Under the pieces are notes generated by a model. The model worked only from the letters and a program-made list of their open reading frames with translations, did no database searches and was not told the origin of the DNA. Below are positions 39,908-55,568 of a DNA stretch of 62,394 bases, piece by piece. The position numbers were made by a program, and so were the translations under genes. Position 1 is the first letter of the stretch. Each line of letters opens with the position of its first letter. The stretch lies in IMG/VR virus record IMGVR_UViG_3300035681_000831, positions 1 through 62,394 of that record. One strand, given 5' to 3'. Origin of the DNA: a virus.

Positions 39908-40112
39908 GTGGGCTGCAACAATAACATTAATTGTTGCTGTTGCGCTTACATCATGGAACGTTTATCCAGCTAACATATATATGAGTGCAGTTGGTAATTT
40001 CCTTTGGTTGCTTATGGCATTGCATTGGAAGAAACTTTCCTTAATCATCATCCAGGCTTTTATATTAATACTATACCTTGCTGGTGTGGTTAATTTTTTC
40101 ATGGGAGTATAA
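39873..40112 (+). CDS. Small integral membrane protein, 79 aa (DUF6552-like)
   Basis: Two or three hydrophobic helices: WAATITLIVAVALTSW, AVGNFLWLLMALHW and LIIIQAFILILYLAGVVNFF. The E-W-A-A-T...N-x-Y-P-x-N pattern resembles a family I know from alphaproteobacteria and their phages. It could be a holin but this is not shown. Overlaps the ClpP gene by 35 bases. Confidence 0.6.
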   Translation: MASQTRLWIFIEWAATITLIVAVALTSWNVYPANIYMSAVGNFLWLLMALHWKKLSLIIIQAFILILYLAGVVNFFMGV

Positions 40113-40113
40113 T

Positions 40114-40815
40114 ATGGCAATTATTCGTTTTTCTACCGAGGAAGTTTTCGGTACAGATTCACAAGAATATGAAATTCTAACACATGCGGTATCTAAGGTT
40201 GGTAACACACCAGGAGCAATCGTAGAGATTGGTACTCGTCGTGGTGGTTCTGCTAAGATGATTATTGATGTGTTGGCTGAGAATGGTAACACTGATCGTT
40301 CAATGTTTTGTATTGATCCTTATGGTAATATTGAGATTGAATGCACCAACCTTAATATGACAATTCATAACCCTGACCGTGTAATCGAAGGCGATAAGCA
40401 GTCTAAGGAACTAACTTCTCCTCAGCGTTTTGATTATGATAACACAATGCGTAACCGCACTATCCCTTCGCTCTATTTCTATGCTTATAACGCTGGTCTA
40501 AACTTCTCATTCTTTTGTCTAGAAGATCATGAGTTCTTTAAGCGTTATGGCGATGGTGTTCCTGTCTATGATGAATACAAGAAGCTAGAGAACGAATATG
40601 CTTTTGTATTCTTTGATGGCCCTCATGACAATGAGACTTTACATGTCGAATGCGACTTCTTCGTGCAGCGTGCACCAGTTGGCGCCGTTTATGTATTTGA
40701 CGATATCTGGATGTATGATCATGATGGTATCGTAGAGAACACTTACCTATTCCCTAATGGGTTTGAAGTTCTTGGGAAGAGCAACATCAAAGCGTCTTAC
40801 ATTAAGACGAAGTAA
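40114..40815 (+). CDS. SAM-dependent methyltransferase (MethylTransf_24-like)
   Basis: 233 residues from ATG 40114. AIVEIGTRRGGSAKMIID is the SAM-binding loop, FCIDPYG follows strand 2, and YAFVFFDGPHDNETLHVECDFF and GAVYVFDDIW match the C-terminal strands of this class, often used on sugars or small metabolites. No neighbour gives its substrate, but the sugar operon 2 kb away is a natural candidate. Confidence 0.75.
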   Translation: MAIIRFSTEEVFGTDSQEYEILTHAVSKVGNTPGAIVEIGTRRGGSAKMIIDVLAENGNTDRSMFCIDPYGNIEIECTNLNMTIHNPDRVIEGDKQSKELTSPQRFDYDNTMRNRTIPSLYFYAYNAGLNFSFFCLEDHEFFKRYGDGVPVYDEYKKLENEYAFVFFDGPHDNETLHVECDFFVQRAPVGAVYVFDDIWMYDHDGIVENTYLFPNGFEVLGKSNIKASYIKTK

Positions 40816-42327: not shown

Positions 42328-42690
42328 ATGAACGAAAAGACCTACTGGGGGCATCATCTCATAATTAATGCAGGCGAATGTAACCATTCTACCATCACAG
42401 ATTACAACACAATCTTTCAGTTTGCTAAGCAGCTAGTCAGAGAAATTGACATGGTTGCTTATGGCGAACCACAGATTGTTAAGTTTGGGCATGGAGATAA
42501 GCAGGGCTATACTCTTGTTCAACTTATAGAGACAAGTAATATTTGTGCACACTTTGTTGATGAAACAAATGATGCCTACATTGATGTCTTTTCATGTAAA
42601 CCTTTTGATGAAAAGGTAGTGATTAATTTAGTAAAAACTTTCTTTGAAGCAAAGAAGTTCGAAACAATGTTTATTGACAGACAAGCATGA
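42328..42690 (+). CDS. speD: S-adenosylmethionine decarboxylase (SpeD-like)
   Basis: 120 residues, the length of bacterial SpeD. HHLIINAGEC near the start, and LIETSNICAHFVDETNDAYIDVFSCKPFD give the processing site (Glu-Thr-Ser; the Ser forms the pyruvoyl group) and the catalytic Cys. It makes decarboxylated SAM for spermidine synthesis. SpeD is a known auxiliary gene of T4-like cyanophages. Polyamines could aid DNA packing. Confidence 0.82.
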   Translation: MNEKTYWGHHLIINAGECNHSTITDYNTIFQFAKQLVREIDMVAYGEPQIVKFGHGDKQGYTLVQLIETSNICAHFVDETNDAYIDVFSCKPFDEKVVINLVKTFFEAKKFETMFIDRQA

Positions 42691-42697
42691 GGATTAA

Positions 42698-43532
42698 ATG
42701 GTTGATGTGATTTGGTCTGATTTCGATCCGGAATCAGAATATTCTTTGAAACAACGTGAAGCTAAAGCAATAAACGGTCCAGAATATTGGCCAACAATGC
42801 GGGAAGTGTTTAAGCACGATTGTGCTACACTCCCGCTAAATCGTTTTAGATTATGGGCTTCTTGCCACAACGTTCCTTTCATTACACAGTATAGAACTTC
42901 TCGTTTTCTTGGCGAGGCTTTCTATCATGCTGCTCGTGATCCTGAGATTGCAGAAGCACTAGAGGAAAATTGGATTGGCGCTCCGGAGCATATCCAAAAC
43001 GCTCTAAGAGTTTCTTCTGACTTTAATACATCAATGCAGCGTATTCAAGATATTGCTCATCTTTGTATCACTGGTTTTGCTAAACAACTAAAGGAAATGG
43101 AATCAATCGTTGAGATTGGTGCAGGATATGGAGACATGTGTTCCGTTGTTCATGCTCTTGGTTTCAAAGGTAAGTATACCATTGTTGATATTCCTGAAAC
43201 TCAGCCAATTCAGGCACACTATCTTGGTAAGCAGGGTATTACTCCTAATTGGTCGTTCGAAGATGACAATGTAACTCATGCTGACCTTGTTATTGCTACA
43301 TGGTCATTGTCGGAAACTCCAGTCGAGTATCGTAATGTGTTAATGCCAAAGATTGACAAATCTAAAAAATTGGCTTATACTAGCACAGTCGGAAGTTTTT
43401 GGGTTTAAGGTAAACGATGATTACTTTAATAATTTCTTCCTAGATAAGAATGTAGAAAAGATTCCATTGATCAGCAATGGTCTTGATGTTTGGGATGGAG
43501 GAAATATGTATTATGTTGTACGGAGCGAGTAA
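42698..43532 (+). CDS. Sugar O-methyltransferase-like protein with an apparent +1 frameshift
   Basis: The open frame 42698-43408 has a SAM-binding SIVEIGAGYGDMCSVV and YTIVDIPETQPIQAHYL, as in putative sugar O-methyltransferases. It stops after GSFWV at a TTTTT run (43396-43400). In the +1 frame the protein continues as VNDDYFNNFFLDKN...MYYVVRSE to a stop at 43530-43532, the usual ending of this family. Removing one T from the run would join them. So it is a real frameshift mutation, a programmed event, or a sequence error. It opens the sugar operon and would methylate the sugar product. Confidence 0.7.
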
Positions 43533-44016
43533 GTTTACAGGTTACGCAGTACCAGAACAATGTTATACTGCTAACTCTACTGAAAAGTGGAGACCAAACA
43601 TTGGTATTACGTTCGGCACGTTTGATCTATTTCATGCTGGGCATACGACTATGCTTCAGCATTGTAAGACACAGTGCGATCAGCTGATCGTAGGGTTACA
43701 ATCTGATCCTACGATTGATCGTCCGGATAGTAAGAACAAACCAATTCAATCATTGTTTGAAAGATATGCACAACTCGATGCTTGTCGTTGGGTTGATGCA
43801 ATTATTCCTTATGACACTGAAGATGACCTACTCAACATACTAAGTATTGGTGAGTTCAGGAAACGATTTATCGGCGAGGAATATAAAGGTCATTATATCC
43901 ACGGCGAAGATATATGTAAGTCAAGAAATATAGAAATTGTTTTCATTGAACGTAAGCATTTTTATTCATCTAGTGAATTGAGACAGAGGGTTTCATATAA
44001 TGAGTCACACAGATAA
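43513..44016 (+). CDS. Cytidylyltransferase-like sugar-phosphate nucleotidyltransferase (TagD/RfaE-C type)
   Basis: 167 residues from ATG 43513. GITFGTFDLFHAGHTTML has the HxGH motif (HAGH), and YSSSELRQRV at the end is the counterpart of the second (ISSTxIR) motif. This family joins CTP or ATP to glycerol-3-phosphate, ethanolamine phosphate or heptose-1-phosphate. With GmhA, GmhB and HddA genes adjacent, heptose-1-phosphate is the likely substrate; the nucleotide (CTP, ATP) cannot be told by eye. Overlaps both neighbours. Confidence 0.8.
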   Translation: MLYGASKFTGYAVPEQCYTANSTEKWRPNIGITFGTFDLFHAGHTTMLQHCKTQCDQLIVGLQSDPTIDRPDSKNKPIQSLFERYAQLDACRWVDAIIPYDTEDDLLNILSIGEFRKRFIGEEYKGHYIHGEDICKSRNIEIVFIERKHFYSSSELRQRVSYNESHR

Positions 44017-44584
44017 TTATTTCAATGAAGTTGTTACGATTGCTCAGACTATCGATACAGTCAAGATCGACATACTGGCGCAGAAACTTAAAGACGTTCG
44101 GGAAAGTGGTGGCCGTGTATTTGTGCTTGGCGTTGGTGGTTCTGCTGGTAACGCTTCCCATATGGTTAACGATCTTCGAAAGCTATGCGGTATCCAATCA
44201 TATTGTCCTACCGACAACGTTCCGGAACTCACAGCGAGAACAAATGATGAAGGATTCGATACAGTCTTCGAAGAGTATCTCCGAGTAAGCAGACTTAGTC
44301 CTTTTGATGCTATCTTTGTTCTATCCGTTGGTGGTGGTAACAAAGCAAAGAATGTTTCAGTAGGTCTATGTAATGCTATTGATCTTGCTGACGAAGTTGG
44401 AGCTCAGGTGTTTGGTATTGTTGGTAAGAATGATGGATATACTTACAAGATGGGCAACTGTGTTGTTTGTATTCCTGCTGTTGACAATACAAGAATCACT
44501 CCTCACTCAGAAGCATTCCAAGGCGTAGTCTGGCATTGCTTAGTTTCTAATCCAATCCTACAGAAGAATGCAACCAAATGGTAA
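44000..44584 (+). CDS. gmhA: Sedoheptulose 7-phosphate isomerase GmhA-like (SIS domain)
   Basis: 194 residues, the GmhA length. GVGGSAGNASHMVNDLRK is the SIS sugar-phosphate loop; TDNVPELTARTNDEGFDTVFEEYL and SVGGGNKAKNVS follow the GmhA pattern, including the active-site Glu/Asp region; HSEAFQGVVWHCL carries the C-terminal His/Glu. It turns sedoheptulose 7-phosphate into glycero-manno-heptose 7-phosphate. Overlaps the preceding and following genes. Confidence 0.9.
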   Translation: MSHTDNYFNEVVTIAQTIDTVKIDILAQKLKDVRESGGRVFVLGVGGSAGNASHMVNDLRKLCGIQSYCPTDNVPELTARTNDEGFDTVFEEYLRVSRLSPFDAIFVLSVGGGNKAKNVSVGLCNAIDLADEVGAQVFGIVGKNDGYTYKMGNCVVCIPAVDNTRITPHSEAFQGVVWHCLVSNPILQKNATKW

Positions 44585-45120
44585 AAGCGATTTTCCTTGA
44601 TCGTGATGGCACGCTCAATGAGCTAGTCCATGGCAGAGATAATCCAAAGCATGTTTGTCCTTGGTATTTCTCAGAGTTTAATTACATTGATGGTGTAGAG
44701 GAAGCTATTAAAGGTTTAAGATCTCTTGGGTTTTCTCTACACGTTGTAACTAATCAGCCAGACGTTGATGATGGATATACAACCGAAGATACAATGAATG
44801 TTATTCATCAGTGTCTTAAGAATGATTTAAAGGTTGATACAATTCAGGCAGCAAGAACACGTGGAACTGAAGAGTATAAACCTAATCCTGGTATGTTGAA
44901 TAAGATCATCAAAGAATGGCACGTTACTAAGGAACGTAGCTGGATGATTGGTGATACATGGCGTGACGTTGTTGCTGGCAACCGTGCCGGAGTAAAGACT
45001 ATATACCTTGGTGATATATATTCCGCTCCTTCCGAATGGCAACAAATCAAGCCAGACTTTTATGCAAAGAATCTTTTGGAAGCAGTTAACATTATTCAAC
45101 AGAATGTAGGTGGCGAATGA
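44578..45120 (+). CDS. gmhB: Heptose bisphosphate phosphatase GmhB-like (HAD family)
   Basis: 180 residues. IFLDRDGTLNEL is the HAD nucleophile motif, VVTNQPDV motif II, KPNPGML the Lys motif III and MIGDTWRDVVAGNRAGVKT motif IV. It removes the 7-phosphate from heptose-1,7-bisphosphate. The zinc-site cysteines of E. coli GmhB are not all present, so the metal site may differ. It overlaps gmhA by seven bases and the transaldolase gene by four. Confidence 0.88.
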   Translation: MVKAIFLDRDGTLNELVHGRDNPKHVCPWYFSEFNYIDGVEEAIKGLRSLGFSLHVVTNQPDVDDGYTTEDTMNVIHQCLKNDLKVDTIQAARTRGTEEYKPNPGMLNKIIKEWHVTKERSWMIGDTWRDVVAGNRAGVKTIYLGDIYSAPSEWQQIKPDFYAKNLLEAVNIIQQNVGGE

Positions 45121-45875
45121 TTGAAGTATATGCAGATGGTGCAGACTTTGAAGGTATTATGAAGGCTGCAGAGAATCCAAGAGTTACTGGGTTCACAACC
45201 AACCCAACCCTAATGCGGCAAGCTGGTATTGATAACTACGAATTGTTCGCTAAGAACACGATTCGTTCTCTTGCTGAGAAACGTCCAGGAACTAATATCT
45301 CTCTAGAAGTATTTGCTGATGATACAGATAACATGTATCTTCAGGCAAAGAAGATTGCTTCATGGGGAACAGAATGTAACTACGACGTATTCGTAAAGAT
45401 CCCTGTTACAAATACAAAGGGCGAAGACAATTACGGTTTGATTCGTTTGCTTAATGAAGAAGGCGTAAAGGTAAATGTTACTGCTGTCTTTACTCCCAAG
45501 CAGACGCAGAATATTCTAGAGAACATTACCAACCCAGATGTTCCTGTTATAATTTCTATCTTTGCTGGTCGTATTGCTGATACTCTACGTGATCCAGTTG
45601 TATGGACAAAGCAGTGTATCGGCGAAGCAATGGATAAGCCGGAAGAGTTTAATAAGATCAAGTTCCTTTGGGCTTCTTGTCGTGAGATCTATCATCTACA
45701 TATGGCAGAGTCTGCTGGTTGTCATATTATTACTATGCTCCACGATCAGATTAAGAAACTGAATCTAGAAGGTAAGGATCTAGAAGAATTTTCTAGAGAA
45801 ACTGTTCAAATGTTTTATAATGATGCCCAGGCATCTGGGTATAGGATTGAGGTAGGTTATAATGAAGGGTTTTGA
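45117..45875 (+). CDS. tal: Transaldolase
   Basis: 252 residues. TTNPTLMRQAG is the family's TNPxL motif near the N-terminus and YDVFVKIPVTN carries the Schiff-base Lys94. VTAVFTPKQT, ISIFAGRIAD and FLWASCREIYH follow. It exchanges a three-carbon unit between sugar phosphates and, by doing so, can form sedoheptulose 7-phosphate, the substrate of GmhA. Phage transaldolases are known in cyanophages, but this one sits inside a heptose operon, which suggests precursor supply. Confidence 0.92.
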   Translation: MIEVYADGADFEGIMKAAENPRVTGFTTNPTLMRQAGIDNYELFAKNTIRSLAEKRPGTNISLEVFADDTDNMYLQAKKIASWGTECNYDVFVKIPVTNTKGEDNYGLIRLLNEEGVKVNVTAVFTPKQTQNILENITNPDVPVIISIFAGRIADTLRDPVVWTKQCIGEAMDKPEEFNKIKFLWASCREIYHLHMAESAGCHIITMLHDQIKKLNLEGKDLEEFSRETVQMFYNDAQASGYRIEVGYNEGF

Positions 45876-46866
45876 AGAAAACGAAATTTCTGCTAAGGCT
45901 CAGGGTGGTACTGAGATTGCCAAGCGTAAGCTGGCAGAAATTCTAGATCAAGATTTACTTGAACAGTGTCAGATCATTTGTTCACGTGAAAGAAATCTAG
46001 ACGAATCTAAGATTCGAATCTTTTGGTGTCATGATATGCCAGAAGATCCGGAGTCTGCTAAGTTTAGAGACACAGATTGGCGTGATAAGTTTCATAAGTT
46101 TGTATTCATTTCTAACTGGCAGTTCCAGCGTTACCAGGGAATGCATGGTATTCCTATGGACAGCAAGTGTATAATTCTAGAGTCAGGTATTGAACCAGCG
46201 CCAGAAACTTGCTTAGAGAAATCATATGATGATAAGATCAGACTAGTATATACTTCTACACCACAACGTGGTCTAGAAATTCTAGTTCCTGTGTTTGAAT
46301 TTCTAAATGAAAATCAGGATGACATTCATCTAGATGTATTCTCTTCATTCAAGATCTATGGTTGGGATGATTACGATAAGCAGTTTGAACCGTTGTATGA
46401 TCAAATTCGCAACAACCCAAATATGACGTATCATGGTTTCGTTCCTAATACTGAATTGAAGGAATATCTTAACAAAGCTCATATCTTTGCTTATCCTTCT
46501 ATTTGGCCAGAGACTTCTTGTCGTGCTATGCTAGAAGCAATGTCAGCTGGATTGGTTTGCGTTCATCCTAACCTTGGCGCTCTTCCAGAAACTTCTGGTG
46601 CTTTGAATGTTATGTATCAGTTTGATATGGACAAGAACATGCATGGAAGCATTTTTGCTGGTAATCTTAATGCAGCAATTGAGCTTGTTCGCCAGAAGAA
46701 GCAGGATAATATGATTAGATTCAACAAGACTTATGTTGACTCTCGTTATAATATTGATTTCATTAAGAGCAAATGGGACTTTATGTTAAGGGATCTAGTT
46801 AAGAAATATCCTGACGCAGAGTCAAGAAAGTTCCCAGAAGCAATGTTTACCTACAAGACGAGCTAA
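45862..46866 (+). CDS. Glycosyltransferase, GT4-like
   Basis: 334 residues. A C-terminal GT-B half with RLVYTSTPQRGLEILVPVFEF, YHGFVPNTELKEYLNKAHIFAYPSIWPETSCRAMLEAMSAGL-type donor site (the E-x7-E pattern in ETSCRAMLEA), and VHPNLGALPE. The N-terminal half is short (about 110 residues) and starts KGFEENEISAKAQGGTE. It could move the activated heptose to phage DNA, a virion protein or the host surface. Overlaps the transaldolase gene by 14 bases. Confidence 0.82.
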   Translation: MKGFEENEISAKAQGGTEIAKRKLAEILDQDLLEQCQIICSRERNLDESKIRIFWCHDMPEDPESAKFRDTDWRDKFHKFVFISNWQFQRYQGMHGIPMDSKCIILESGIEPAPETCLEKSYDDKIRLVYTSTPQRGLEILVPVFEFLNENQDDIHLDVFSSFKIYGWDDYDKQFEPLYDQIRNNPNMTYHGFVPNTELKEYLNKAHIFAYPSIWPETSCRAMLEAMSAGLVCVHPNLGALPETSGALNVMYQFDMDKNMHGSIFAGNLNAAIELVRQKKQDNMIRFNKTYVDSRYNIDFIKSKWDFMLRDLVKKYPDAESRKFPEAMFTYKTS

Positions 46867-46869
46867 ACA

Positions 46870-47859
46870 ATGATTGTTACAAAAACTCCACTACGTGTTT
46901 CGTTTTTTAGTGGCGGTAGCGATATGCCATCCTTCTATGAACAGGAGGATGGCGCCGCCCTTTCTGTTACTATCAATAAGTTCATTTATGTATTTGCGCA
47001 CAAGGTTCCGCATATGGGCGTGCGTTGTATGTATGATGATGTTGAAGAACAACATGACATTGAACAAATGCAGCATGCAATTACTCGTGAGACTCTAAAG
47101 TATTATAACATTACAAAGGAGATTACGGTTGCGTCCATTTCAGATATTGTTTCTAAGGGTTCTGGGCTCGGTAGTTCTTCTGCTTTTACTGTGGGTCTTG
47201 TCAAAGCTCTATCCACTACAAAGTATGATAACAGCACTCGTAAGTATGTAGCAGATATTGCTTGTCAAATCGAAATGGAAAAGTGCGGCTATCCTGTTGG
47301 TAAGCAGGATCAGTATGCTGCAGCGTTTGGTGGCATGAATCTATTTCGTTTCAAAAGAAATGGCGAAGTTGAAATAGAAGAAATGAGACTAACCAACCCG
47401 CATGTTAGTGCTCTCGAAAAGAATCTATTGCTTGTATATTCTGGCCGTGGTAGAGATGCTAATAACATTCTACAGAAGCAACAGAAGGCAATGCTCGATA
47501 TTGATAAGTTTAATAAAGTTAAACGGTCAAGAGATAAGGCGTTCGAAGCAGTAGATCTAATTCATAAAGGAAAGATCGACGACTTCGGTAGACTACTTCA
47601 CGAATCTTGGTTGGACAAGAAAGGCGTTTGCGAAGAGATTACACAGGACTACTTTGATAAGATCTATGAGACTGCTATGGAGGGCGGAGCTCTCGGCGGT
47701 AAACTACTAGGCGCTGGTGGTGGAGGATTCTTTATCTTCTACGTTCCGGAAAAAGATCGTGCCTCTGTCGAATGGGGTATCATGAATCTTCATAAAGAAT
47801 GTCGTATCTATGACTTCGAATTCTATGGCTCGGGTTCTCATATGGTCTACCAGAACTAA
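46870..47859 (+). CDS. hddA: GHMP kinase, D-glycero-alpha-manno-heptose 7-phosphate kinase HddA-like
   Basis: 329 residues, as in HddA. TPLRVSFFSGGSDMPSFYE at the start, the GHMP ATP loop GSGLGSSSAFTVGLV, QDQYAAAFGGMN, and the C-terminal GGKLLGAGGGGFFIFY. It adds phosphate to C1 of heptose 7-phosphate. HddA belongs to the GDP-heptose branch; HddC is missing and a TagD-like enzyme takes its place, which is unusual. Last gene of the operon. Confidence 0.9.
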   Translation: MIVTKTPLRVSFFSGGSDMPSFYEQEDGAALSVTINKFIYVFAHKVPHMGVRCMYDDVEEQHDIEQMQHAITRETLKYYNITKEITVASISDIVSKGSGLGSSSAFTVGLVKALSTTKYDNSTRKYVADIACQIEMEKCGYPVGKQDQYAAAFGGMNLFRFKRNGEVEIEEMRLTNPHVSALEKNLLLVYSGRGRDANNILQKQQKAMLDIDKFNKVKRSRDKAFEAVDLIHKGKIDDFGRLLHESWLDKKGVCEEITQDYFDKIYETAMEGGALGGKLLGAGGGGFFIFYVPEKDRASVEWGIMNLHKECRIYDFEFYGSGSHMVYQN

Positions 47860-53052: not shown

Positions 53053-53127
53053 TGGAGCGGGCGACCAGATTCGAACTGGCGACGAACAGCTTGGAAGGCT
53101 GACACTCTACCCCTGAGTTACACCCGC
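53053..53127 (-). tRNA. tRNA-Gly (TCC)
   Basis: 75 bases with encoded CCA. Acceptor GCGGGTG/CGCCCGC, loop CTTCCAA, T-loop TTCGAAT. Reads GGA. Confidence 0.93.
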
Positions 53128-53128
53128 A

Positions 53129-53233
53129 TTAATTACTAGAAAGCATATGAATATCGGAAATTATAAAACCTATCATGATTGTTATTCCAAAGAAACAAAC
53201 AATCTTTATGATGGCGCTAGTCTTATGATCCAT
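53129..53233 (-). CDS. Single-span membrane mini-protein, 34 aa
   Basis: In the gap between two tRNAs. ATG 53233 has AAGGA upstream. The product begins MDHKTSAIIKIVCFFGITIM and forms one hydrophobic helix. Small membrane proteins of this kind are easy to find by chance in AT-rich DNA, so confidence is low. Confidence 0.4.
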   Translation of the reverse strand: MDHKTSAIIKIVCFFGITIMIGFIISDIHMLSSN

Positions 53234-53250
53234 AATATATATCCTTTAGA

Positions 53251-53325
53251 TGGCTGGGAAACCTGGACTCGAACCAAGATTAACGGAGTCAGAGTCCGTG
53301 GTTTTACCGATTAAACTATTTCCCA
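53251..53325 (-). tRNA. tRNA-Gln (CTG)
   Basis: Acceptor TGGGAAA/TTTCCCA, anticodon stem ACGGA/TCCGT with loop CTCTGAC, encoded CCA. Reads CAG; a second Gln tRNA (TTG) is at 54645. Confidence 0.93.
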
Positions 53326-53326
53326 A

Positions 53327-53402
53327 TGGTGCTGGCAGAAGGAATCGAACCCTCGACCTGATGCTTACAAGGCAACTGCTCTACCGTCTGAGCTATACCA
53401 GC
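53327..53402 (-). tRNA. tRNA-Thr (TGT)
   Basis: Acceptor GCTGGTA/TGCCAGC, loop CTTGTAA, T-loop TTCGATT, encoded CCA. It begins one base after tRNA-Gln ends. Confidence 0.93.
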
Positions 53403-53409
53403 ATTAATC

Positions 53410-53829
53410 TTAATACGCAGGAACTAAACAACTCTGAACCAGATCTGCTCCGCCAAATAACTGACCAAACAAATCATAAGGATCAACATACATTGCACAG
53501 TTTCCAGCAGCGGCCACAGGAACATTAGTTGGATATCCCGGAGGCGAATAGATGTTAGATGCTTCTGGAGTTGGAACGTAGTTATAAACAGGAACCAACG
53601 GTGCAGGCTGAACAGGAACTGCTACAGGAACTGCAATCGTAGAACTAATTGGTCCTGGACCAGCTGGAACATACTCAACTGCAACAGGAACTTGAACAGT
53701 CTTTACTACCTTCTTAACAACTGGCTTCTGAACATTGATGTTACAGTTGTTACAATAATCAATGTTATAATTGCCAGCAAAAGCAGGAGTTGCAAAAACA
53801 AGAGCCAACGCTAATGCTAACTTTTTCAT
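53410..53829 (-). CDS. Secreted Pro/Val-rich protein, 139 aa
   Basis: Start at 53829: MKKLALALALVFATPAFA is a signal peptide; upstream extension runs through the neighbouring gene. The mature part begins GNYNIDYCNNCNINVQKP and continues with VPVAVEYVPAGPGPISSTIAVPVAVPVQP-type Pro/Val repeats, then an ending CAMYVDPYDLFGQLFGG. Likely periplasmic or surface-exposed. Unusual for a phage; function unknown. Confidence 0.65.
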   Translation of the reverse strand: MKKLALALALVFATPAFAGNYNIDYCNNCNINVQKPVVKKVVKTVQVPVAVEYVPAGPGPISSTIAVPVAVPVQPAPLVPVYNYVPTPEASNIYSPPGYPTNVPVAAAGNCAMYVDPYDLFGQLFGGADLVQSCLVPAY

Positions 53830-53830
53830 C

Positions 53831-54118
53831 TTAGTATCCGTAGTAATAATAACGAGGACGATTGTAGTAGTAAGCCGGAGGAGCATATGGTGCGTAATAA
53901 CCACCACCATAAGGATATCCGTAACCACCGTAACCATAACCCTGCGAAGCAATTGCTCCACCAATTACACCACCAAGAATAGCAGCACCAGCCATGGCAC
54001 CATACGCTGCGCCATAACCGTATCCGTAACCACCATAGCCATAACCCCATGCATTGGCTGGCTGAGAAGCAGTAGTAATACCAAGAACTAACAGTAATGC
54101 AACAGCGAACTTTTTCAT
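53831..54118 (-). CDS. Secreted Gly/Tyr-rich protein, 95 aa
   Basis: Start at 54118, with GGAG six bases upstream. MKKFAVALLLVLGITTASQP...NA is a signal peptide. The mature part is made of GYGYGGYGYGYG repeats around a glycine-zipper segment GAMAGAAILGGVIGGAIAS, ending in Tyr/Pro. Outer-membrane-associated glycine-zipper lipoprotein-like proteins have this look. Paired with the preceding secreted gene one base apart. Confidence 0.65.
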   Translation of the reverse strand: MKKFAVALLLVLGITTASQPANAWGYGYGGYGYGYGAAYGAMAGAAILGGVIGGAIASQGYGYGGYGYPYGGGYYAPYAPPAYYYNRPRYYYYGY

Positions 54119-54136
54119 TTCGATCTCCATAAAGGA

Positions 54137-54172
54137 GCGGACTAACCTTAGATCCGCACGAGTCTATTTATA
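54137..54172 (-). promoter_or_regulatory. Late promoter followed by a 5'-terminal hairpin
   Basis: TATAAATA (54172-54165), predicted start near 54159. A nine-pair hairpin with one bulge begins at 54157: GCGGA/TCCGC with CTAA/TTAG inside (54157-54137). It leads the two secreted-protein genes. Confidence 0.72.
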
Positions 54173-54188
54173 GCGACCAACCTAATTC

Positions 54189-54263
54189 TGGCTGGAATGG
54201 CAGGATTCGAACCTGCGACCAAGTGATTAACAGTCACCTGCGCTACCGCTGCGCCACATTCCA
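54189..54263 (-). tRNA. tRNA-Asn (GTT)
   Basis: Acceptor TGGAATG/CATTCCA, loop CTGTTAA, T-stem GCAGG/CCTGC, encoded CCA. Confidence 0.93.
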
Positions 54264-54440
54264 ATATAAGAATATAAATCCACCGATAGTCAAGACAAAA
54301 AAGATAATACTCCAACATATATCGTTGATAATATCTTTCTTTACTTGACACATAACTCGATCGCATCCAATAGGATAACTACGAGTCACTCTCGAACATT
54401 CTTTACATACATAGTAGTTGGGGAAGTTCATATCATTCAT
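54243..54440 (-). CDS. Cys-containing membrane protein, 65 aa, overlapping tRNA-Asn
   Basis: Starts MNDMNFPNYYVCKECSRVTR, with CxxC and further Cys residues, then a hydrophobic helix IIFFVLTIGGFIFLYW. Its last 21 bases lie within tRNA-Asn. A sigma-70-like promoter and a late box both precede it. Overlap with a tRNA is unusual, so it may be spurious. Confidence 0.45.
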   Translation of the reverse strand: MNDMNFPNYYVCKECSRVTRSYPIGCDRVMCQVKKDIINDICWSIIFFVLTIGGFIFLYWNVAQR

Positions 54441-54442
54441 CG

Positions 54443-54477
54443 TATTTATATTCTACCCTAAACCTACCAAAAGTCAA
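54443..54477 (-). promoter_or_regulatory. Overlapping early and late promoters
   Basis: TTGACT (54477-54472), 16-base spacer, TAGAAT (54455-54450); TATAAATA (54450-54443) follows at once, so both polymerase modes could start within about ten bases. Confidence 0.6.
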
Positions 54478-54485
54478 GTTATTTA

Positions 54486-54561
54486 TGGTGCTGTCGGAGA
54501 GAGTCGAACTCCCGACCTGATGATTACTAATCAACTGCTCTACCAACTGAGCTACGACAGC
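54486..54561 (-). tRNA. tRNA-Thr with AGT anticodon
   Basis: Acceptor GCTGTCG/CGACAGC, loop TTAGTAA, T-stem GGGAG/CTCTC, encoded CCA. A34 in a Thr tRNA is unusual for bacteria, where Thr tRNAs normally have G34, T34 or C34. Its anticodon arm is a close relative of tRNA-Thr (TGT) at 53327, with the same T-T mismatch. Confidence 0.88.
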
Positions 54562-54567
54562 ATTAAA

Positions 54568-54641
54568 TGGTACTGGGACTAGGTATCGATCCTAGGCTCC
54601 GAGCTCCACAAACTCGGGTGCTTCCATTACACTACCCCAGC
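54568..54641 (-). tRNA. tRNA-His (GTG)
   Basis: Acceptor GCTGGGG/TCCCAGT, anticodon stem CGAGT/GCTCG, loop TTGTGGA, T-stem CTAGG/CCTAG. Read this way there is no encoded G-1/C73 pair typical of bacterial His tRNA (73 is A). Confidence 0.85.
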
Positions 54642-54644
54642 ATA

Positions 54645-54718
54645 TGGATCGGGGACCTGGACTCGAACCAAGAACGACGGAGCCAAAACCCGTAGTTTTA
54701 CCATTAAACTATCCCCGA
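54645..54718 (-). tRNA. tRNA-Gln (TTG)
   Basis: Acceptor TCGGGGA/TCCCCGA, anticodon stem ACGGG/TCCGT, loop TTTTGGC, encoded CCA. Confidence 0.92.
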
Positions 54719-54725
54719 ATAAATT

Positions 54726-54809
54726 TGGTGCCGAGAGTAGGGTTCGAACCTACCGTGCTATAAGCGTCTGATTTACAGTCAGGTGCCCGTCCACTCAGGC
54801 GTCCTCGGC
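54726..54809 (-). tRNA. tRNA-Tyr (GTA)
   Basis: Class II with a long variable arm, as usual for bacterial Tyr. Acceptor GCCGAGG/TCTCGGC, loop CTGTAAA, encoded CCA. Confidence 0.93.
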
Positions 54810-54814
54810 ATTAA

Positions 54815-54891
54815 TGGAGCTCCCGGAGAGATTTGAACTCCCAACCCTCGGTTCCGTAGACCGATGCTCTATCCTGTTGAGCTACAGAAGC
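54815..54891 (-). tRNA. tRNA-Arg (ACG)
   Basis: Acceptor GCTTCTG/CGGGAGC, loop CTACGGA, T-loop TTCAAAT, encoded CCA. A34 is normal here (host TadA makes inosine). Confidence 0.92.
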
Positions 54892-54895
54892 ATAT

Positions 54896-54972
54896 TGGTG
54901 CCCTTGGTCAGATTCGAACTGACACTTTGTTGATTTTGAGTCAACTGCCTCTGCCGATTGGGCTACAAGGGC
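54896..54972 (-). tRNA. tRNA with Leu anticodon CAA but short variable loop
   Basis: Acceptor GCCCTTG/CAAGGGC, anticodon stem GTTGA/TCAAC, loop CTCAAAA, variable AAAGT, encoded CCA. Bacterial Leu tRNAs have a long variable arm; this one does not. Named by anticodon only. Confidence 0.88.
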
Positions 54973-54978
54973 ATTATA

Positions 54979-55054
54979 TGGTGCTTCACCTTTGAATCAA
55001 ACAAAGTCCTTCTGTTCTTCAGACAGACGTGCGGATCACCTACACCAGCGAAGC
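54979..55054 (-). tRNA. tRNA-Phe (GAA)
   Basis: Acceptor GCTTCGC/GTGAAGC, anticodon stem TCTGT/ACAGA, loop CTGAAGA, T-loop TTTGATT, encoded CCA. Confidence 0.9.
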
Positions 55055-55060
55055 ATTATA

Positions 55061-55155
55061 TGGTTGGTCAGGTAGGAGTTGCACCTACACGTCATCGTTT
55101 CAACTAGTATGCGACGACAGCTGTTACGCCACGGTTACTATTACGTCACTGACCA
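55061..55155 (-). tRNA. tRNA-like gene of 95 bases, anticodon not assignable
   Basis: Perfect acceptor TGGTCAG/CTGACCA, T-stem GTAGG/CCTAC and an encoded CCA mark a tRNA, but the T-loop is TGCAACT. The 60-base middle does not fold into a normal D and anticodon arm: the best stem there is TCGTCG/CGATGA with a 14-base loop. It may be degenerate, carry an insertion, or have another function. Confidence 0.65.
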
Positions 55156-55159
55156 ATAA

Positions 55160-55236
55160 TGGTGCCCCAGGAGAGATTCGAACTCCCAACCTTTGGTTCC
55201 TAAGACCAACGCCTCTGCCAATTGGGCTAATGGGGC
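55160..55236 (-). tRNA. tRNA with Leu anticodon TAG but short variable loop
   Basis: Acceptor GCCCCAT/CTGGGGC, anticodon stem TTGGT/ACCAA, loop CTTAGGA, variable AGGTT, encoded CCA. Its D-arm is nearly identical to the CAA tRNA at 54896, so both are probably one lineage. Confidence 0.88.
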
Positions 55237-55241
55237 ATAAA

Positions 55242-55317
55242 TGGTAGACGATGACAGGTTCGAACTGCCGACCTTCGCTGTGTAAAAGCGTTGCTCTCCC
55301 AACTGAGCTAATCGTCC
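55242..55317 (-). tRNA. tRNA-Val (TAC)
   Basis: Acceptor GGACGAT/ATCGTCT with G1-T72, loop TTTACAC, encoded CCA. Confidence 0.93.
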
Positions 55318-55321
55318 ATAA

Positions 55322-55399
55322 TGGTCGGGGTAGCAGGATTCGAACCTGCGACCTACTGGTTCCAAACCAGCCACGCTAACCAGACTGCGCTACACCCCG
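55322..55399 (-). tRNA. tRNA-Pro (TGG)
   Basis: Acceptor CGGGGTG/TACCCCG, anticodon stem GCTGG/CCAGT, loop TTTGGAA, encoded CCA. Confidence 0.93.
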
Positions 55400-55406
55400 A
55401 ATATAT

Positions 55407-55482
55407 TGGATGCGAAGCGTTGGAATTGCACCAACTTCTACTGGTTTATGAGACCAGCGAGATACTATACCTCCCGCCCGCA
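55407..55482 (-). tRNA. tRNA with CAT anticodon (Met type)
   Basis: Anticodon stem CTGGT/ACCAG, loop CTCATAA, T-stem GTTGG/CCAAC with the odd T-loop TGCAATT. The acceptor TGCGGGC pairs imperfectly with the 3' side. Shares the TGCAA T-loop with the odd tRNA-like gene at 55061. Confidence 0.8.
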
Positions 55483-55489
55483 AAACTCT

Positions 55490-55564
55490 TGGTGCTGATA
55501 GTTGGAATCAAACCAACCTGAAACGCCTTATGAGAGCGCCTCGACATCTTGCCGACCTATCAGC
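55490..55564 (-). tRNA. tRNA with CAT anticodon (Met or Ile2)
   Basis: Acceptor GCTGATA/TATCAGC, anticodon stem GCGCT/GGCGT, loop CTCATAA, T-loop TTTGATT, encoded CCA. Third CAT tRNA in the window. Confidence 0.88.
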
Positions 55565-55568
55565 GAAA

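What the first reader, a model, noticed from the sequence alone, without database searches (positions are those of the whole stretch)
42698..47859. Phage operon linking transaldolase to an activated-heptose pathway
Seven overlapping genes encode a methyltransferase, TagD/RfaE-type nucleotidyltransferase, GmhA, GmhB, transaldolase, glycosyltransferase and HddA. Transaldolase can make sedoheptulose 7-phosphate, so the route may run from host sugar phosphates to NDP-heptose. HddC, the guanylyltransferase usual with HddA, is absent and a cytidylyltransferase-like enzyme replaces it, so the product might be CDP- or ADP-heptose in the alpha series. The product could decorate phage DNA, the virion, or the host surface (for example superinfection exclusion).
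Basis: partly seen in the sequence, partly recalled or inferred. Interest (0 to 1): 0.87.

Follow-up and report, generated by a model that had tools for sequence, protein, structure and literature searches.

The report
Phage cassette for making activated heptose
A family of freshwater T4-like phages carries a conserved gene cassette that probably builds an activated seven-carbon sugar from ordinary cell sugars and hands it to an old phage sugar-transferring enzyme, but where the sugar ends up (host surface, virion or phage DNA) is unknown.

Summary
Window 43477-47859 encodes nucleotidyltransferase (NT), GmhA-like isomerase, GmhB-like phosphatase, transaldolase (TAL), GT4 glycosyltransferase and HddA-like kinase; a methyltransferase (42698-43408) is accessory. 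All six recur together in 74 of 78 viral loci with adequate flanks, under purifying selection.

The transaldolase-heptose link is real but not a phage invention. Of 70 bacterial and archaeal relatives of this TAL, 63 have GmhA or GmhB beside it. Two podovirus-like contigs also pair TAL with HldE-type enzymes. TAL carries transaldolase-type, not FSA-type, active-site residues.

The unusual part is the kinase-NT pairing. In sampled cells, an NT travels with PfkB-type kinase, and HddA with an HddC-like NTP transferase. The phages pair HddA with a phage-specific NT family. The pairing recurs in Cr30, a cyanophage, and as a kinase-NT fusion in a 595-kb phage. CDP versus ADP is undecided.

GT is an old core gene that persists where the cassette is absent, so the cassette probably feeds it. 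The acceptor is open. Most long relatives also encode a TET/amino-acid DNA-hypermodification operon just beyond the window's edge, making DNA a serious but unproven target. No activity was tested.

The parts
42698..43408 (+). MT1: accessory methyltransferase, weakly like the putative sugar O-methyltransferase NanM; variable presence, longer in some relatives
   Evidence: TIGR04371 43.9 bits against cutoff 44; absent in L028, L030, L046 and others; homologs up to 272-278 aa
43477..44016 (+). NT: HxGH nucleotidyltransferase of the TagD/HldE fold, phage-specific family (phrog_7878); true start probably further downstream
   Evidence: AlphaFold2 model pLDDT 90, nearest B. subtilis GCT 1coz Z 17.0, rmsd 1.9, 125 aligned; tree split from HldE/HldC at 100/99
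44000..44584 (+). GmhA-like SIS-fold isomerase; distinct subfamily shared with cellular TAL clusters (47-65% identity), 25% identical to E. coli GmhA
   Evidence: Profile against PDB finds phosphoheptose isomerases and DiaA; model Z 22.0, rmsd 2.9, 177 aligned to GmhA 1tk9, tied with DiaA 21.8; H54/D58/E171/H179 invariant, aligning with E. coli H61/E65/Q172/H180
44578..45120 (+). GmhB-like HAD-IIIA phosphatase (LDRDGT motif; the Cys/His zinc motif of E. coli GmhB is missing)
45117..45875 (+). TAL: transaldolase, TIGR02134-like; Lys94 Schiff-base lysine, Glu64 and Phe149 at the positions of TalB Glu96 and Phe178 (FsaA has Gln59 and Tyr131)
   Evidence: phage TALs form one group at 99/99
45862..46866 (+). 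GT: GT4-type (expected retaining) glycosyltransferase with E-x7-E (ETSCRAMLE); old core gene of this T4-like clade
   Evidence: persists at the same place without the cassette in G019, G029 and G023
46870..47859 (+). HddA-like GHMP kinase (GSGLGSSSAF, GKQDQYA and GAGGGG motifs)
   Evidence: NF049969 150.8 bits; PDB HddA/sugar kinases at E about 1e-35
40078..40815 (+). TylF/Methyltransf_24 methyltransferase 2 kb upstream; similar small MTs lie inside the cassette in some relatives (L017 6577-7131, L322 899-1486), so possibly a tailoring enzyme

Best explanation
This is a self-sufficient NDP-heptose cassette wrapped around an older phage glycosyltransferase. Inferred route: TAL makes sedoheptulose 7-phosphate from fructose 6-phosphate and erythrose 4-phosphate; [quoted passage not shown] HddA phosphorylates C1 (alpha); the GmhB-like protein removes the 7-phosphate; the phage NT activates heptose 1-phosphate with an undetermined NTP (slight lean to CTP); the GT4 enzyme transfers the sugar, perhaps O-methylated, to an acceptor. 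Shown by sequence: gene content, conservation, co-inheritance, intact catalytic motifs, and the HddA-NT pairing. Inferred: every substrate and product. The acceptor is unknown; I rank host envelope glycan (about 0.4) over phage DNA (about 0.25-0.3) and virion protein (about 0.2).
For: Six-gene block fixed in 74 of 78 viral loci with enough flank, purifying selection. TAL beside GmhA/GmhB in 63 of 70 cellular loci, with either PfkB+NT (24 of 45 loci with both flanks) or HddA without NT (14 of 45), i.e. all steps of a heptose-activation route. TAL active-site type. HddA-to-NT linkage recurs: HddA-NT fusion in LR756511, HddA-GmhA-[HAD+NT] followed by an epimerase in SynMITS9220M01, GmhA-HddA-GT plus NT in Cr30. 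Known chemistry: HddA gives the alpha-1,7-bisphosphate in the GDP route (PMC10680097). In close relatives G019/G029 the NT, GmhA, TAL and HddA are missing together while GT stays.
Against: All family scores lie below equivalog cutoffs. The isomerase is only 25% identical to E. coli GmhA, and its fold match is tied with the non-isomerase DiaA. The NT family also sits in contexts without recognised heptose genes, e.g. beside a choline-kinase-like gene and a dUMP hydroxymethyltransferase in AB434P2, or beside epimerases and a dehydratase in S-B43, so its substrate is not fixed by family. G019/G029 keep a 94% identical GmhB-like gene without a kinase, so that gene may do something else. Two relatives (L045, L178) have GT-GmhA-TAL-SDR-oxidoreductase-HddA with no NT or GmhB found nearby.
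Confidence: 0.68

Rival explanations
1. The activated heptose (or whatever sugar the cassette makes) is put on phage DNA: a TET-type dioxygenase hydroxylates a pyrimidine methyl group and the GT4 enzyme caps it, as T4 glucosylates and RB69 arabinosylates hydroxymethylcytosine.
For: TET/JBP gene in 10 of 12 cassette-bearing contigs over 60 kb and in a 50-kb contig whose cassette is identical to the window's apart from frame breaks in MT1; it lies 15-28 kb downstream of HddA where measured, just past the window's end. G011, which lacks TET, has a thymidylate-synthase-family gene and a dCMP deaminase. Cr30 and DLP6 have both TET and the GT. Precedent for phage-made sugar donors for DNA: RB69 and Thanatos (PMC6024577, PMC12838424).
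Against: The GT also occurs in phages with no TET (phiM12, RHph_I1_18, OC, HTVC027P); phiM12 and RHph_I1_18 carry thymidylate-synthase genes that look ordinary by score, OC and HTVC027P carry none. TET is present in relatives without the cassette (G019, G023). G014 has the cassette but neither TET nor TS in 99 kb. The G001 TET operon has its own apparent sugar-free route: kinase and amino acid:DNA transferase. GT and TET are not in one operon, and co-occurrence may be shared descent.
Confidence: 0.27
2. The sugar is added to the host envelope (LPS or capsule) during infection, blocking superinfection or altering lysis.
For: GT4 enzymes and GmhA/HddA genes are typical of LPS/capsule clusters; heptose genes in cyanophages sit in larger polysaccharide-like clusters; pelagimyophage GTs were read this way (PMC7029224).
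Against: No flippase, polymerase, anchor or other envelope gene was recognised in the operon or its immediate flanks; the GT is the only transferase there, and it sits beside replication genes. A lytic phage gains only briefly from changing the envelope.
Confidence: 0.4
3. The transaldolase is there for carbon flow (ribose 5-phosphate for nucleotides), like cyanophage TalC, and merely sits in a sugar operon.
For: Cyanophage transaldolases are proposed to reroute the pentose phosphate pathway (established literature, from memory); the phage has its own ribonucleotide reductase.
Against: This TAL is about 45-54% identical to cellular TALs that sit in heptose clusters but only about 30% to cyanophage TalC; it is missing together with NT, GmhA and HddA in G019/G029; the coupling recurs independently in podovirus-like phages and cells.
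Confidence: 0.08
4. The sugar is not a heptose: TAL may condense the dihydroxyacetone unit with another aldose phosphate (e.g. arabinose 5-phosphate to an octulose phosphate), and the divergent isomerase, kinase and NT handle that sugar.
For: The isomerase subfamily is far from known GmhA (25%) and follows TAL across cells and phages; cells already make sedoheptulose 7-phosphate by transketolase, so a dedicated TAL is odd.
Against: GmhB-like, HddA-like and HldE-like (PfkB+NT) partners are all heptose-type enzymes by best match or near-best match; podovirus-like L052 encodes an HldE-like kinase/NT fusion close to TAL.
Confidence: 0.12

Closest known systems
[quoted passage not shown] Campylobacter jejuni; PMC10680097)
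   Same: Isomerase, GHMP kinase HddA and HAD phosphatase of the same types; alpha-1-phosphate expected
   Different: HddC (NTP_transferase fold) replaced by an HxGH nucleotidyltransferase; dedicated transaldolase in the operon; isomerase subfamily distinct
ADP-heptose pathway (GmhA-HldE-GmhB-HldD) and viral/archaeal/eukaryotic heptose nucleotidyltransferases (PMC11573728)
   Same: NT of the same fold as the HldE C-domain; same four-step logic; viral members already reported
   Different: Kinase is GHMP, not PfkB; NT falls outside the HldE/HldC group and lacks the STTR5 motif; no HldD-like epimerase in the window's cassette
Cellular GmhA-GmhB-TAL clusters (Alphaproteobacteria, Betaproteobacteria, Acidobacteriota, Chlamydiota, Methanoperedens and others)
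   Same: Same TAL, isomerase and phosphatase subfamilies in the same order GmhA-GmhB-TAL
   Different: Cells follow with two epimerases, NT and PfkB, or use HddA plus an HddC/MurU-like NTP transferase; no HddA+NT pair as in phages
Caulobacter phage Cr30 heptose genes (GmhA-HddA-GT-epimerase, NT elsewhere)
   Same: HddA 42%, GT 42%, NT 43% identical to the window; TET homolog also present
   Different: No transaldolase match; NT not in the same operon; epimerase present
T4-like phage sugar-on-DNA systems (T4 glucosyl-hmC, RB69 arabinosyl-hmC, Thanatos pentose)
   Same: Phage-encoded transferase; in RB69/Thanatos a phage-made sugar donor is proposed or partly shown
   Different: No evidence here that DNA is the acceptor; sugar predicted to be a heptose

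Membership tests
GDP-alpha-heptose pathway (HddA/HddC type) | HddA-type GHMP kinase | tested here: met
   NF049969 best match, 150.8 bits but below cutoff 600; PDB HddA homologs E about 1e-35
GDP-alpha-heptose pathway (HddA/HddC type) | HddC guanylyltransferase (NTP_transferase fold) with the cluster | tested here: not met
   No such gene in the window's cassette; an HxGH NT is there instead, as in related cassettes
ADP-beta-heptose pathway (HldE type) | PfkB-type heptose 7-phosphate kinase | tested here: not met
   Kinase is GHMP; no PfkB in any HddA cassette of this lineage
ADP-beta-heptose pathway (HldE type) | NT groups with HldE/HldC nucleotidyltransferases | tested here: not met
   100/99 split puts it in a phage family apart from E. 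coli HldE and cellular cluster NTs
NTP-promiscuous heptose nucleotidyltransferase (STTR5) | (F/L)xxGRSTT motif | tested here: not met
   Window reads KHFYSSSELR at that place; motif from PMC11573728
Transaldolase TIGR02134 | Profile match with Schiff-base Lys and transaldolase-type Glu/Phe | tested here: met
   267 bits against 282, 15 bits short of the curated cutoff; K94, E64, F149
Sedoheptulose 7-phosphate isomerase GmhA | SIS fold with conserved His/Glu/Gln/His catalytic-metal set | tested here: inconclusive
   Fold matches GmhA, tied with DiaA; set is H/D/E/H, invariant in 34 homologs
Phage DNA glycosylation | Sugar found on virion nucleosides | not testable with these tools
   Needs LC-MS of phage DNA
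Phage DNA glycosylation | Phage enzyme that hydroxylates a pyrimidine | tested here: inconclusive
   Not in the window itself; TET in most long relatives

The most novel reading that the evidence does not exclude
These phages make a nucleotide sugar not described from cells, a CDP- (or other NDP-) alpha-D-glycero-D-manno-heptose, through a kinase/nucleotidyltransferase pairing not seen in the sampled cells, and use it to heptosylate their own TET-hydroxylated DNA.
Probability: 0.15. Interest if true: 0.9.

Novelty: new variant of a known kind. Interest (0 to 1): 0.57.

Why it matters
If right, phages carry a complete route from central sugars to an activated heptose, independent of the host's heptose metabolism, built by mixing the kinase of one known pathway with a phage-specific nucleotidyltransferase. 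That would give a new nucleotide sugar to look for, a function for a widespread phage NT family now labelled TagD or HldE, and a function for a large set of cellular GmhA-GmhB-transaldolase clusters for which I found no description in the held library. It also makes the acceptor question testable in the cultured proxy phage Cr30.

Tried and rejected
Cyanophage identity of the contig: no psbA in nine related contigs. TalC-like role of TAL: wrong subfamily and wrong neighbours. HldE/HldC assignment of the NT: rejected by tree, although NCBIfam's best score is rfaE_dom_II. Cytosine route for TET (5mC to 5hmC): no C5-methyltransferase in ten contigs. Strict TET-GT link: GT found without TET and TET without cassette. 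Fold matches could not settle isomerase versus DiaA, nor CTP versus ATP. Promoter scan gave counts little above shuffles and was not used. Bellamy 'aldolase' beside heptose genes is Aldolase_II, not a transaldolase. PDB sequence search for the GT found nothing at E 0.01. Paper searches pairing transaldolase with gmhA or with phage heptose found nothing on point; the library is open-access only. One family scan failed on wrong coordinates and was rerun with corrected ones.
Full report
What is there. The window is a 62,394-base linear IMG/VR virus record. It is T4-like: family-B DNA polymerase 48-49% identical to cyanomyovirus and marine-virus polymerases, a structural protein 65% identical to cyanophage S-RIM50, and a ribonucleotide reductase most like the adenosylcobalamin type of alphaproteobacterial phages. 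It has 25 tRNA genes. No psbA was found in nine related contigs, so the host is probably not a cyanobacterium. The seven ORFs of the finding are at the stated coordinates. NT/GmhA, GmhA/GmhB, GmhB/TAL and TAL/GT overlap by 17, 7, 4 and 14 bp; GT-HddA are 3 bp and MT1-NT 68 bp apart.

Assignments. TAL gives 267 bits to TIGR02134 (cutoff 282). The kinase gives 151 bits to HddA (cutoff 600) and finds HddA-type structures at E about 1e-35. The NT's best NCBIfam match is the HldE C-domain (73 bits) over TagD (51 bits), while its best single PDB sequence match is ethanolamine-phosphate cytidylyltransferase and its nearest model match is TagD of B. subtilis (Z 17.0, rmsd 1.9, 125 aligned). The isomerase model matches GmhA 1tk9 (Z 22.0, rmsd 2.9, 177 aligned) but DiaA equally (21.8); a profile search of the PDB finds mainly phosphoheptose isomerases, best E 9e-16.

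Active sites. TAL carries Lys94 and, at the two positions that separate transaldolases from fructose-6-phosphate aldolases, Glu64 and Phe149 as in TalB rather than Gln and Tyr as in FsaA (the role of these residues is from general knowledge). They are invariant in the 13-sequence alignment. The isomerase keeps His54, Asp58, Glu171 and His179, aligning with E. coli GmhA His61, Glu65, Gln172 and His180. GmhB-like has the HAD motif but not the zinc motif. GT has E-x7-E (sequence).

Conservation. The gene set NT-GmhA-GmhB-TAL-GT-HddA recurs in 74 of 78 viral loci with enough flank (several are near-copies). dN/dS against relatives is 0.04-0.22 for all genes, near the values of the neighbouring exonuclease, PhoH and ClpP. 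MT1 is missing in some relatives, and other small methyltransferases appear in or beside the block in others.

Transaldolase and heptose. A genome scan with the TAL alignment returned cellular relatives at about 45-54% identity. Of 70 with at least 2 kb upstream, 63 have GmhA or GmhB on the same strand within 2.5 kb; only three lack any heptose-type gene within 6 kb. Hosts include Alpha- and Betaproteobacteria, Acidobacteriota, Chlamydiota and Methanoperedens. The scan chose loci by TAL similarity only, not by neighbours, but it kept only the best 80 matches. Phage TALs of this lineage form one group (99/99), so the gene was probably acquired once. Two other viral contigs (L052, L053) pair TAL with HldE-like enzymes: a kinase/NT fusion in L052, and GmhA, NT and a separate PfkB kinase in L053; L052's flanks carry podovirus-like genes by my reading of the translations.

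Kinase-NT pairing. In cellular loci with both flanks, 24 of 45 have PfkB plus NT and 14 have HddA without NT; the one with all three has HddA on the opposite strand. Where read, HddA clusters carry an NTP transferase related to HddC and MurU (L086, L088). In the phages HddA goes with the NT. The NT tree splits, with 100/99 support, into an HldE/HldC group (cell NTs, E. coli HldE, L052 and L053) and a phage family holding the cassette NTs, Cr30, SynMITS9220M01, LR756511, S-B43 and Vibrio, Acinetobacter and Agathobaculum phages. In LR756511 a kinase and this NT are one ORF; in SynMITS9220M01 the NT is fused to a HAD-like domain between HddA, GmhA and an epimerase. These repeats argue that the NT acts on the kinase's product. 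But members also occur with dehydratase/epimerases or with a choline-kinase-like gene and a dUMP hydroxymethyltransferase, so family alone does not fix the substrate. The phage NTs aligned here lack the (F/L)xxGRSTT promiscuity motif reported for heptose nucleotidyltransferases (PMC11573728) and keep an Arg aligned with that of the TagD RTEGISTT motif, which HldE and the cellular cluster NTs sampled lack. I lean slightly to CTP; this is not a test.

What the cassette feeds. GT homologs occur in Cr30 (beside HddA), DLP6, phiM12 and kin, RHph_I1_18, OC and pelagiphages, often near glutaredoxin and RNase H. In G019 and G029, close relatives with PhoH 94% and exonuclease 93%, the same place reads SpeD-GmhB-like-GT: NT, GmhA, TAL, HddA and MT1 are missing together. 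In G023 only GT remains. So GT looks older, and the heptose genes seem to come and go as a unit around it. The retained GmhB-like gene in G019/G029 is unexplained.

Acceptor. Relatives carry a TET/JBP dioxygenase downstream of HddA, 15-28 kb away in the four contigs measured: 10 of 12 cassette contigs over 60 kb have it, plus the 50-kb contig whose cassette is identical to the window's apart from frame breaks in MT1. The window stops inside the sliding-clamp gene, next to where this operon lies in G001. The G001 operon also encodes an amino acid:DNA transferase and a P-loop nucleotide kinase, which points to thymine hypermodification by an amino-acid route; no C5-cytosine methyltransferase was found in ten contigs. 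G011 lacks TET but has a thymidylate-synthase-family gene and a dCMP deaminase. This makes DNA a serious candidate, with RB69 and Thanatos as precedents for unusual sugars on phage DNA (PMC6024577, PMC12838424). Against it: GT occurs without TET, TET without the cassette, and G014 has the cassette with neither TET nor TS in 99 kb. Many contigs are fragments, so absences are weak. Host envelope or virion remain at least as likely.

Verdict. A real, conserved, probably functional NDP-heptose cassette; a new variant of known heptose-activation pathways.

Noticed in passing
L224 3392-7617 (G001:C1 143392-147617): Operon with TET/JBP dioxygenase, a conserved protein of unknown function (phrog_3650), amino acid:DNA transferase and P-loop nucleotide kinase, next to a GT-A-like gene and the sliding clamp, in G001; TET is present in most long relatives of the window's phage. 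Suggests DNA hypermodification.
   Followed up: partly
L064-L143 (e.g. L069, L086 3124-6711, L088 2048-6693): Widespread cellular GmhA-GmhB-transaldolase clusters, in bacteria and archaea, of two kinds: with two epimerases, NT and PfkB kinase, or with HddA and (where read) an HddC/MurU-like NTP transferase.
   Followed up: partly
L062 7980-9356: Single ORF fusing a GHMP (HddA-like) kinase to the phage-type nucleotidyltransferase in a 595-kb uncultured phage record.
   Followed up: partly
L052 10001-13782, L053 9414-15101: Other viral contigs with transaldolase beside HldE-like kinase/NT genes and sugar epimerases, within larger sugar clusters.
   Followed up: partly
L319 10015-10557, L321 10518-11060: GmhB-like gene 94% identical to the window's kept beside GT although isomerase, kinase, NT and TAL are gone; function there unexplained.
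   Followed up: no
L045, L178: Cassette variant with an SDR and a Gfo/Idh-type oxidoreductase (read by eye) between TAL and HddA, and an epimerase before GT in L178, without NT or GmhB nearby; may make a modified heptose.
   Followed up: no
L334 1314-4500: Agathobaculum phage AB434P2 has the same NT family beside a choline-kinase-like gene and a deoxyuridylate hydroxymethyltransferase, hinting at an NT role in base modification elsewhere.
   Followed up: no
L002 4790-5498: Methyltransferase MT1 broken into three frames in a contig otherwise identical to the window here; sequencing error or decay.
   Followed up: no
window 53053-57073 (-): Cluster of 24 tRNA genes on the minus strand; S-adenosylmethionine decarboxylase at 42328-42690 directly before MT1.
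   Followed up: no
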